64,000 bases of DNA from Enterobacter cancerogenus (GTDB taxonomy: Bacteria > Pseudomonadota > Gammaproteobacteria > Enterobacterales > Enterobacteriaceae), in contig NZ_CP077290.1 in the NCBI RefSeq assembly GCF_019047785.1, positions 4,402,001-4,466,000 of the forward strand, given 5' to 3'. The translations under genes were made by a program, and so were the position numbers. Below are positions 9,998-11,761 of this stretch, piece by piece. Position 1 is the first letter of the stretch. Each line of letters opens with the position of its first letter. Under the pieces are notes generated by a model. The model had not been told where the DNA came from. It made no database searches and was given only the letters and a program-made list of their open reading frames with translations.

Positions 9998-10114
9998 CCA
10001 CGTTGCTCCCTTTTCTTGGTCTACCAAGAGTGTATCTCAGGGAGGGGAAAAGCGGGTAAGAACAGGACGAAAGGCAAAAAATAAGGCTAACACTAAAGCT
10101 ACCCAGGTTACGCA

Positions 10115-10320
10115 GAGGCGTTAAACCACGTTGGCCCATGCGTGTACTTTGGGCGGAAGGGTTATGGCAGCAGGAGGCGATATCAGTCATCCACAATTTA
10201 AGGTATCAAGCCCGGCCAAAATTCCGAAATTCCCGGATAATATCTCACAGGCACAGACCCAGTAAACGTAACGCAGCCGGGGCTAAAACGTGTTTGAAGG
10301 GCAGGAGGCGTTAAACAACG
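10115..10320 (+). repeat. Pair of 16-bp direct repeats flanking the remnant
   Basis: GAGGCGTTAAACCACG (10115-10130) and GAGGCGTTAAACAACG (10305-10320) differ at one base. Each contains an in-frame TAA for an open frame running into it (ending ...TQRR and ...GRRR), so they may be copies of a gene-end/gene-start junction duplicated during insertion of cargo. Confidence 0.4.
10125..10265 (+). pseudogene. Possible remnant of an upstream cargo gene
   Basis: An open frame without a stop runs from 10125 to the TAA at 10263. It contains an ATG at 10164 that would give a 33-residue peptide starting MAAGGDISHPQFKVSSPAKI. The five codons or so before that ATG (CTLGGRV) read smoothly into it, suggesting the 3' part of a larger broken gene, perhaps a delivery or adaptor protein of the toxin module. 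No Shine-Dalgarno sequence is clear. I do not recognise the family. Confidence 0.25.
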
Positions 10321-10420
10321 AGCAATACGCGCGAGGCGTAAGCTGATGAATCATTATTGACCTTACATCTGATGGATAATAACCTCGGGTTTAACTGCTT
10401 AATGATAAAAGGGAGTTTAT

Positions 10421-11236
10421 ATGCAAACCCAGGATGGGCTTACCGTTACGATATCTCCGGTACAGATGGCCGCTATATTACGTGGTAAAACTGTCAGCGA
10501 AGGAGAAACAATGAGTAACCGTTTATGGGGCGGTCTGGGCGTTGTAAGCGGCGTTGTAGAAATGTTCGGTGCAGGCGTTTTGTGTGTGGTTCCTGAACCC
10601 ACAATGTTATCTAAAGCAGGATGTGTTGTTGTAGGCTCTCATAGTCTCGATACCCTAACGGCGTCATTTAAGCAGGTGATTACGGGCAGACAAACATCAA
10701 CTGCCACTGCACAACTGGCTGAGATCGCTGCCGGTGAGCTCGGTGCAAGCGCGGAAACCGCTTATAAAGTCGGTGTGACATTTGATATTGCGGTTCCTTT
10801 TGCATTTGCGGGGGCTGCCGGAGCCGCCAGGATTGGATCCATATATTCAGGGCGCATTCGATTGTTGGATCATGAAGGTGGAAAATTAGGGCATACTATT
10901 GCTCGCCATGTTGGAAGGACGCCTGAGCAGTTGAAAGCGAGATTTTTAGAGGCTCGTGTACCCACTGCATCCAGTTCATTTTTTAATATCAGACAAGCGG
11001 AACTGGTCATTTCTGAGGTTTTTTCTGTGAAAAAAAGTCAGATAGAGGCTGCGCTAAAGTATTCTAATGCGCGCACTACCTTATCCTATTCACACAAATT
11101 CAGGGTGCCAGTAGGGTATTATATTGAGAAGGGTTCTGATAAGGTTAAAAAAGTCTATGGCGTGCGGTTAGTTATCAGACCATCGACATATAATGGAAAA
11201 CTTTTCTATATTGTGACGGCATTTCCAATACCTTAA
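10421..11236 (+). CDS. Orphan polymorphic toxin with RNase A-like (CdiA-CT type) C-terminal domain
   Basis: A 271-residue protein. Residues 1-145 are Ala/Gly-rich with two hydrophobic stretches (about 36-75 and 117-138) and look like a delivery or membrane-entry region. Residues about 150-271 match the bacterial RNase A-like toxin domain known from the CdiA-CT of Yersinia kristensenii: GHTIARHVG (157-165), a conserved Arg174 eleven residues after His163, an ASSSFF strand, and the final YIVTAFP (263-269). His163, Arg174 and Thr266 fit the reported catalytic residues; the expected Tyr two residues after Thr is Phe268 here. GGGAG lies six bases before the ATG. No CdiB, VgrG, Rhs or PAAR gene is nearby, so how it is delivered is unclear. 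Confidence 0.75.
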   Translation: MQTQDGLTVTISPVQMAAILRGKTVSEGETMSNRLWGGLGVVSGVVEMFGAGVLCVVPEPTMLSKAGCVVVGSHSLDTLTASFKQVITGRQTSTATAQLAEIAAGELGASAETAYKVGVTFDIAVPFAFAGAAGAARIGSIYSGRIRLLDHEGGKLGHTIARHVGRTPEQLKARFLEARVPTASSSFFNIRQAELVISEVFSVKKSQIEAALKYSNARTTLSYSHKFRVPVGYYIEKGSDKVKKVYGVRLVIRPSTYNGKLFYIVTAFPIP

Positions 11237-11245
11237 GGGGGCGCT

Positions 11246-11584
11246 ATGGATGCGGATATCTATAAACCATGTGAGCTTGATAATTTGGTCGTAATATATT
11301 TCGGGCAGGATTGCGATATTTTTGATGCCGACTGTGATTTTGACAATTTGTTGAATGAATATTTGACCACTTCGCCAGTATTCAGCCTTAGAATGTGCCT
11401 GGCAAATTTAACTGAAATAGAGTCTGATCCTGATGGGGTTAAGATTTTTTCAGAACGTTATCGTCACGAATTTGACCCTGAGGGTTGGAATATGACAGCG
11501 CAGGAATGGCTCGGTACTGTTAAAGCCCGACTGATAAGCTACATGACAGCCAAAGGTTACTCGACAGAGTTGTCGCATTTCTAG
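11246..11584 (+). CDS. Likely cognate immunity protein (CdiI type)
   Basis: A 112-residue acidic protein, nine bases after the toxin stop and with a GGGGGCG ribosome binding site. The N-terminal LDNLVVIYFGQDCDIFD segment resembles immunity proteins that accompany RNase A-like CdiA-CT toxins, and the acidic charge fits binding to a basic RNase domain. The gene is AT-rich compared with its core neighbours, as expected for transferred DNA. The pairing is inferred from position and family resemblance. If the toxin is active, this gene should be essential in its presence. Confidence 0.7.
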   Translation: MDADIYKPCELDNLVVIYFGQDCDIFDADCDFDNLLNEYLTTSPVFSLRMCLANLTEIESDPDGVKIFSERYRHEFDPEGWNMTAQEWLGTVKARLISYMTAKGYSTELSHF

Positions 11585-11639
11585 TATACAGCGGGCCAGC
11601 ACTACGCACTCTGATTCAGACCGAGCGGTCGTGAAACCG

Positions 11640-11668
11640 GCGTCAAACAATGTCCAGTGGTTTGACGC
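11640..11668. repeat. Perfect 9-bp inverted repeat next to the attachment core
   Basis: GCGTCAAAC (11640-11648) and GTTTGACGC (11660-11668) form a 9-bp stem with an 11-base loop. It abuts the A-run that begins the P2-like core and the end of cyaR. It has no U-run on the plus strand, so it is a weak terminator candidate for the immunity gene. It could be an integrase or excisionase arm site left from a prophage, or simply an mRNA end structure. Confidence 0.45.
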
Positions 11669-11755
11669 AAAAAAATAAGCCCGCGTAAGGGAGATTACGC
11701 AGGCTAAGGAGGTGGTTCCTGGTACAGCTAGCATTTATGGGTTATGTTTTTCAGC
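11669..11755 (-). ncRNA. cyaR: CyaR small regulatory RNA
   Basis: The minus strand reads GCTGAAAAACATAACCCATA, then a hairpin region containing CCAGGAACCACCTCC, and ends with the stem CCCTTACGCGGG-type terminator and a run of seven U. This is the Hfq-binding sRNA CyaR (RyeE), about 87 nt, nearly identical to the E. coli RNA. In E. coli it represses ompX, nadE, luxS and yqaE by base pairing through its CCUCC-containing seed. The location beside yegQ is the same as in E. coli. Confidence 0.95.
11670..11696. other. P2-type phage attachment core (attB) in the cyaR terminator
   Basis: This 27-base segment begins AAAAAATAAGCCCGCG and ends GGGAGATT. As I recall the P2 attP core, it differs from it at one base (GCG for GTG). 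In E. coli K-12 the same spot is occupied by a P2 remnant (ogrK). It coincides with the cyaR terminator, so integration would regenerate the sRNA 3' end. Confidence 0.65.
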
Positions 11756-11761
11756 GGGGGG

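What the first reader, a model, noticed from the sequence alone, without database searches (positions are those of the whole stretch)
10421..11584. Orphan RNase A-like toxin and immunity pair without a delivery gene
Seen: a two-gene unit, 271 and 112 residues, nine bases apart and AT-rich, with a C-terminal domain carrying the GHTIARHVG, Arg174 and YIVTAF signature of the CdiA-CT RNase A-like toxins. Known: such domains normally occur at the end of very large CdiA or Rhs/VgrG-type proteins. Inference: here the toxin is free-standing, with a 145-residue Ala/Gly-rich hydrophobic N-terminal half of unclear function. It could be delivered by a type VI system encoded elsewhere, be a captured orphan module, or act as a stand-alone toxin-antitoxin pair.
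Basis: partly seen in the sequence, partly recalled or inferred. Interest (0 to 1): 0.75.

Follow-up and report, generated by a model that had tools for sequence, protein, structure and literature searches.

The report
Stand-alone antibacterial RNase toxin-immunity cassette
A small two-gene module, an RNase A-like toxin with its own conserved front domain plus an immunity gene, sits at a phage attachment site and belongs to a family carried by prophages, plasmids and conjugative elements; comparison suggests, without proof, that the host's type VI secretion system fires it into rival bacteria.

Summary
The pair is real: 271 aa (10421-11236, +) and 112 aa (11246-11584, +), nine bases apart, 45% GC against 56%. 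Residues 157-269 match Pfam RNAse_A_bac (E 3.5e-27), the second protein CdiI_2 (E 1.2e-16). Being free-standing is normal for this family: its N-terminal ~150 residues are a conserved domain without a Pfam match; in 40 of 41 regions compared it came with an RNase A-like C-terminus, and no listed match lay in a giant CdiA or Rhs-size frame. The family lies on P2-like and lambdoid prophage contigs, plasmids, an integrative conjugative element and scattered chromosomal sites. Here it fills an insert bounded by a 10-bp repeat at the 3' end of CyaR, where two same-genus genomes carry a phage-type integrase. In two Rhizobium tumorigenes strains a full-length homologue lies between hcp and vgrG. All 27 carriers among 392 family genomes have a type VI gene, but this is only weakly significant after correction for genome size. 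Best reading: a mobile effector-immunity cassette used by the host's type VI system, left by a decayed prophage. Toxicity and delivery are inferred. No structure could be predicted.

The parts
10076..10085 (.). left copy of the 10-bp direct repeat AAAAAATAAG that bounds the insert
   Evidence: blastn of the empty site of relative L132 against the window
10086..11669 (.). insert absent from the 252-bp empty site of relatives; about 46% GC
10165..10266 (+). 33-codon frame upstream of the pair, possibly the 3' end of a lost gene; its frame is recognisable in Buttiauxella L002
   Evidence: by eye
10179..10420 (+). upstream region 83% identical to that of the Buttiauxella copy (L002); probably holds the promoter
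   Evidence: 82.7% over 243 columns; the promoter scan found nothing above chance on this strand
10421..11236 (+). toxin (candidate effector), 271 aa
10421..10870 (+). conserved N-terminal domain, residues 1-150, hydrophobic, no Pfam match
10889..11227 (+). RNase A-like toxin domain, residues 157-269 (H163, R174, T266 kept; F268 for Tyr)
11246..11584 (+). CdiI_2-type immunity protein, 112 aa
11670..11679 (.). right copy of the direct repeat, overlapping the 3' end of CyaR
11673..11757 (-). CyaR/RyeE small RNA, whose 3' end is the integration target
   Evidence: Rfam RF00112, 104.4 bits

Best explanation
The locus is a mobile effector-immunity cassette. The 271-aa protein is an antibacterial effector whose C-terminal domain is a metal-independent RNase of the bacterial RNase A type. 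The 112-aa protein binds and blocks it in the producer and its kin. The conserved, hydrophobic N-terminal domain loads the effector on the type VI apparatus (Hcp or VgrG), or carries the RNase across the target's inner membrane, or both. The cassette travels on temperate phages, plasmids and conjugative elements and is fired by whatever type VI machine the new host already has; here that machine lies about 0.9 Mb away. It arrived by integration at the 3' end of CyaR, probably on a P2-like prophage whose other genes are gone. Shown: gene anatomy, domain matches, family structure, insertion boundaries, association with mobile elements, presence of type VI genes. Inferred: RNase activity, neutralisation, type VI delivery, the role of the N-domain, the identity of the lost carrier.
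For: Domain matches with H163, R174 and T266 kept in 31, 30 and 30 of 31 relatives. Conserved N-domain in short frames, with an RNase A-like match in 40 of 41 regions compared. In R. tumorigenes 1078 and 932 the homologue and its CdiI_2 partner lie between hcp and vgrG of a type VI cluster. TssK in 27 of 27 carriers against 230 of 392 genomes and in 3 of 3 carriers against 29 of 100 in another family (chance 0.023). ShlB/CdiB is missing from 4 of the 27 carriers. Own genome: type VI genes present. Insert bounded by a direct repeat at CyaR, integrase homologue at the same site in 2 of the 10 long intervals read, 26 viral contigs, 13 plasmid records and an ICE with the family. Purifying selection: dN/dS 0.11 (N-domain) and 0.12 (immunity) against Buttiauxella. 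Toxin end exchanged within a shared upstream and N-domain frame. Extra immunity genes in tandem in some loci.
Against: The pair is not near the type VI cluster here, and no type VI gene recurred within 6 kb in the enterobacterial loci compared. Direct type VI linkage was seen in one species only. After correction for genome size the 27 of 27 has a chance of about 0.014, or 0.06 counting 18 genera, with an uncertain number of large negatives. The own genome and 22 of the other 26 carriers also have a ShlB/CdiB gene. No known type VI marker domain was found in the toxin. The catalytic Tyr is Phe. No fold could be obtained. No phage gene was recognised in the insert itself.
Confidence: 0.58

Rival explanations
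1. Phage-coupled bacteriocin: the toxin is made or released with prophage lysis, or rides on the phage tail, and does not use a type VI system.
For: 26 viral contigs carry it; 10 of 26 have lysis genes, Q or a DNA methylase within about 5 kb; on two contigs it lies near ogr, in one after gpU and gpD.
Against: In all 10 contigs the pair lies on the strand opposite to those phage genes; plasmid, ICE and Rhizobium copies have no phage context in the stretches read.
Confidence: 0.12
2. Stand-alone intracellular toxin-antitoxin or abortive-infection pair that is never exported.
For: Two small adjacent genes on mobile elements, many copies per genome in some species.
Against: Toxin gene comes first; a conserved 150-residue N-domain that an intracellular RNase would not need; position inside a type VI cluster in Rhizobium; no PADLOC match; extra immunity genes in tandem.
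Confidence: 0.13
3. Silent reservoir: a toxin-immunity cassette kept as spare tip for CdiA or Rhs proteins by recombination.
For: Allele exchange inside the gene is seen; the own genome has a ShlB/CdiB gene.
Against: The own genome has a single RNAse_A_bac match, this one; the N-domain has no CdiA or Rhs pre-toxin match in Pfam; own start codon and ribosome site; conserved N-domain in all members compared.
Confidence: 0.08
4. Dead remnant of a prophage with no present function.
For: 4 of the 7 same-genus genomes with a match hold only fragments; no other gene of the carrier is recognisable here.
Against: Both frames and ribosome sites are intact; catalytic H, R, T kept; dN/dS about 0.1 against Buttiauxella in N-domain and immunity gene.
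Confidence: 0.06

Closest known systems
CdiA-CT/CdiI of Yersinia kristensenii (PDB 5E3E), the first bacterial RNase A-type toxin
   Same: Homologous toxin domain with three of four catalytic residues; CdiI-type immunity gene directly downstream
   Different: There the toxin is the tip of a giant two-partner-secreted protein; here it ends a 271-aa protein with another N-terminal domain; Phe in place of the catalytic Tyr
Effector-immunity pairs in hcp operons and vgrG loci of agrobacterial type VI clusters (PMC8546570, passages read)
   Same: The Rhizobium homologue lies between hcp and vgrG with its immunity gene
   Different: The window pair is far from its type VI cluster; RNase does not occur in the text of that paper
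Short, unstalked type VI toxins described in the polymorphic toxin survey PMC3482391 (passages read)
   Same: Short toxin with C-terminal toxin domain and immunity gene
   Different: The conserved N-domain here is not an Hcp domain and has no Pfam match
RNAse_A_bac among domains of type VI effectors listed for Klebsiella (PMC12469244, passages read)
   Same: Same toxin domain named among type VI effectors
   Different: Table entry only; whether that protein has the N-domain was not checked

Membership tests
Bacterial RNase A-like toxins (PF18431) | Sequence match above the curated cut-off | tested here: met
   95.9 bits against 27
Bacterial RNase A-like toxins (PF18431) | Catalytic His, Arg, Thr, Tyr of the Y. 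kristensenii toxin | tested here: inconclusive
   H163, R174, T266 kept; Tyr is F268; F in 16 and Y in 13 of 31 relatives
Bacterial RNase A-like toxins (PF18431) | RNase activity | not testable with these tools
   needs an assay
CdiI_2 immunity proteins (PF18593) | Sequence match above the curated cut-off, directly downstream of the toxin | tested here: met
   61.7 bits against 26.7
Contact-dependent inhibition (CdiA/CdiB) | Toxin is the tip of a very large two-partner-secreted protein beside cdiB | tested here: not met
   271-aa frame without such domains; the only ShlB gene of the genome is about 0.85 Mb away; ShlB missing in 4 of 27 carriers
Type VI secretion effectors | Encoded in a type VI cluster | tested here: inconclusive
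   Not met for the window pair; met for the homologue in two R. tumorigenes strains
Type VI secretion effectors | Carriers have a type VI system | tested here: met
   27 of 27 and 3 of 3 carriers, plus 12 of 12 listed (three repeated, four with fragments only); weakly significant after size correction
Type VI secretion effectors | Fusion to Hcp, VgrG, PAAR or Rhs | tested here: not met
   no such Pfam match in the toxin; cargo effectors need none
Type VI secretion effectors | Type VI-dependent secretion | not testable with these tools
   needs tss deletions
Type II toxin-antitoxin systems | Antitoxin gene first, small bare toxin | tested here: not met
   toxin first and with a 150-residue N-domain; the defining feature is from memory and has exceptions
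P2-like prophage insertion at CyaR | Insert flanked by a direct repeat at the CyaR 3' end, with integrase-bearing relatives at the same site | tested here: met
P2-like prophage insertion at CyaR | Recognisable phage genes in the insert | tested here: not met
   none found in the window insert; present at the same site in L002, L161, L167

The most novel reading that the evidence does not exclude
The ~150-residue N-terminal domain is an undescribed loading or inner-membrane-translocation domain for type VI effectors, and temperate phages, plasmids and conjugative elements spread this effector-immunity pair as cargo that plugs into the type VI machine of any new host.
Probability: 0.42. Interest if true: 0.7.

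Novelty: new variant of a known kind. Interest (0 to 1): 0.5.

Why it matters
Bacterial RNase A-type toxins are known mainly as tips of giant CdiA proteins. Here the same toxin comes as a short, self-contained protein with a front domain that no Pfam family covers, and it moves as prophage, plasmid and conjugative-element cargo. If the type VI inference holds, lysogeny hands the host a new weapon for a machine it already owns, and the N-domain becomes a marker for orphan type VI effectors that lie far from any vgrG.

Tried and rejected
Truncated CdiA or Rhs gene: rejected; the longest stop-to-stop frame of any listed N-domain match is 369 aa (G1157) and 318 aa in the main family. N-domain joined to other toxins: not seen; of 42 regions compared (L002, L003, L043-L082; not every place listed) 41 had an N-domain match and 40 of these an RNase A-like match; the exception, L080, is cut off after 67 residues. 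On the 26 viral contigs 25 had both; the other ends at the contig edge. Recurrent neighbour other than the immunity gene: the next largest cluster was in 8 loci. Anti-phage system: no PADLOC match. GenBank phages: no tblastn match, although 26 IMG/VR contigs match. PDB sequence relatives of the N-domain: none. Promoter scan: no more than chance (4 found, 3.3 expected). E. coli: only the flanking yegQ matched, and the upstream 335 bases matched nothing there.

Structure: 21 requests to predict the toxin from alignment A4 (24 sequences) all met a full queue, so no fold search was made.

Full report
Observation. The toxin domain and the immunity protein both pass Pfam's curated cut-offs and the toxin domain matches the solved Yersinia kristensenii CdiA toxin. 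That toxin's active site is H175, R186, T276 and Y278 (PMC9086364, passages read). Here the equivalents are H163, R174, T266 and F268; across 31 relatives H163 is kept in 31, R174 in 30 and T266 in 30, and position 268 is F in 16, Y in 13 and M in 2. The genome (G000) is one 4.82-Mb contig and the window is its bases 4,402,001-4,466,000; it has one RNAse_A_bac match, this one.

A family of its own. Residues 1-150 alone find 27 of 392 genomes of the bacterial family, in 18 of 154 genera; one genome (G146) has 8 matches, some of them fragments, and one carrier (G404) has a fragment only. In the genus 7 of 61 genomes match, of which 3 (the own one, G013, G021) are full length and 4 hold fragments. 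Wider draws give 3 of 398 in the phylum, 2 of 274 in the class (the own genome counted in each) and 3 of 100 in the family of G809. The listed frames are short, at most 369 aa from stop to stop. In the 42 regions compared, 41 had the N-domain, 40 of these an RNase A-like match and 24 of the 41 an immunity match by direct tblastn with the window's protein; a chained cluster of small frames that holds the immunity genes was found in 34 loci. The N-domain averages 57% identity between the 31 members aligned and the toxin domain 39%; N exceeds C in 456 of 465 pairs. It has two hydrophobic stretches (19-residue peaks of 2.1 and 1.5 in the window's protein) and no match over that part in Pfam, NCBIfam or PHROGs at E 0.1, nor in PDB sequences (one Pfam hit at E 0.13 lies there). 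Cysteines 55 and 68 are invariant in the 31 members of A1 but not in the Rhizobium protein.

Mobile element. 30 of the 59 same-genus genomes with yegS were given as loci, the own one included. In 8 of the other 29 the yegS-yegQ interval is 252 bp, in 11 it is 807-1,269 bp, and in 10 yegQ lies beyond the 1.5-kb flank. Against the empty site the window has an insert at about 10086-11669, bounded by AAAAAATAAG on both sides, the right copy overlapping the 3' end of CyaR. Of the 10 long intervals, 2 (G028, G019) have a homologue of the Buttiauxella integrase fragment next to yegS and no yegQ within the 20 kb read, and G019 also a homologue of the portal-like fragment; the other 8 have yegQ within 20 kb. 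The pair was not found in the 19 shorter intervals or in the 10 stretches of 20 kb. A Buttiauxella assembly (L002) has the pair at the same site with an integrase fragment on one side (PF00589) and on the other a fragment that looks like a P2 portal to me, for which Pfam gave no match; by eye a similar repeat bounds that insert too. The name P2 for these remnants therefore rests partly on recall. On viral contig L108 the copy, which has a shifted frame and runs into the contig end, follows gpU, gpD and ogr, and on L110 an ogr gene lies close by. In the Erwinia oleae locus L003 the pair lies beside genes that match four integrating-conjugative-element or conjugal-transfer families. 13 plasmid records match, 11 Pantoea and 2 Rhizobium. 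26 viral contigs match; 10 of 26 have lysozyme, holin, Q or methylase homologues within about 5 kb, in all 10 on the strand opposite to the toxin, and 7 of 26 have integrase homologues within about 8 kb (Pfam names).

Allele exchange. Between the window and the Buttiauxella copy the 242 bases upstream are 83% identical. Third codon positions agree at 0.84-0.88 in codons 1-75, 0.56 in 76-100 and 0.36 after that, 0.45 in the last block. The fall points to recombination within the N-domain that brought in another toxin end. dN/dS is 0.11 for the N-domain and 0.12 for the immunity gene; synonymous change in the toxin domain is saturated, so none is given there.

Delivery. By eye the protein has no signal peptide, and no two-partner-secretion domain was matched. 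In R. tumorigenes 1078 and 932 the full-length homologue (35% identity) and its CdiI_2 partner lie between hcp and vgrG. A genomics paper mentions that type VI cluster (PMC10064268, passages read); the passages do not speak of an RNase effector. TssK is present in 230 of 392 family genomes and in all 27 carriers. Many genomes without it are small: in a random 80 of the 141 unlisted negatives that I could name (142 were unlisted), 18 are 2.5 Mb or larger, as are 5 of the 20 listed ones. Taking about 37 large negatives, the chance that all 27 carriers have TssK is 0.014, and 0.06 if 18 genera are counted; for 23 or 50 large negatives it is 0.066 or 0.004, and 0.17 or 0.026 by genera. In the family of G809 it is 0.023. 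One search adds 12 of 12 carriers or records, three of them the G809-family carriers again and four with fragments only. ShlB/CdiB is found in 23 of 27 carriers and not in G061, G128, G136 and G256; no baseline for ShlB was drawn. The own genome has type VI genes (tssA, B, C, H, hcp and vgrG by tblastn, some with weak E-values; TssK by profile) about 0.9 Mb from the pair, and one ShlB gene. No type VI gene was seen in the enterobacterial regions of up to 10 kb on each side; in G809 a vgrG lies about 10 kb away with unrelated genes between.

Literature. Searches with the terms RNase A-like + T6SS + effector + N-terminal domain, RNase_A_bac, PF18431, RNase A superfamily + type VI secretion, prophage + T6SS effector + moron, RNase A-like domain-containing, and CdiA-CT RNAse A domain listed no paper that I could recognise as on this stand-alone family; for only 20 of 397 papers were listed. 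The library holds open-licence papers only and lacks the founding paper of the toxin. A Klebsiella study lists RNAse_A_bac among domains of type VI effectors (PMC12469244, passages read); a survey of polymorphic toxins describes short unstalked type VI toxins (PMC3482391, passages read); agrobacterial hcp operons and vgrG loci hold effector-immunity pairs (PMC8546570, passages read). One search for CyaR as an attachment site listed nothing relevant.

Verdict. The kind (polymorphic toxin with immunity) is known; the stand-alone architecture with its own N-domain and its carriage by prophages and other elements is the new part.

Noticed in passing
window 10165-10266 (+): A 33-codon frame upstream of the toxin whose reading frame is recognisable in Buttiauxella L002; it may be the end of a lost gene of the carrier element.
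   Followed up: partly
L002:10040-11320 (+): A 426-aa frame of unknown function between the phage remnants and yegQ in the Buttiauxella insert; no Pfam match and no NCBIfam match above a cut-off.
   Followed up: partly
L084:9259-9852 (+): A 197-aa protein without Pfam, NCBIfam or PHROGs match between hcp and the toxin in R. tumorigenes; a possible adaptor for this effector. The same arrangement is in strain 932 (L171).
   Followed up: partly
L084:10856-11518 (+): The Rhizobium immunity protein is 220 aa, about twice the usual length, with CdiI_2 only in its first half.
   Followed up: no
L053, L060, L075: Tandem toxin-immunity pairs or extra immunity genes in other genomes of the family.
   Followed up: no
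yegS-CyaR-yegQ interval, L132-L160: The interval is a hotspot in the genus: 8 of 29 empty, 11 with roughly 0.55-1.0 kb more, 10 with larger ones, 2 of these with a phage-type integrase.
   Followed up: partly
viral contigs L106, L107, L112, L113, L118, L122, L125-L128: In lambdoid-type contigs the pair lies near or between Q or a DNA methylase and the lysis genes, on the opposite strand.
   Followed up: partly
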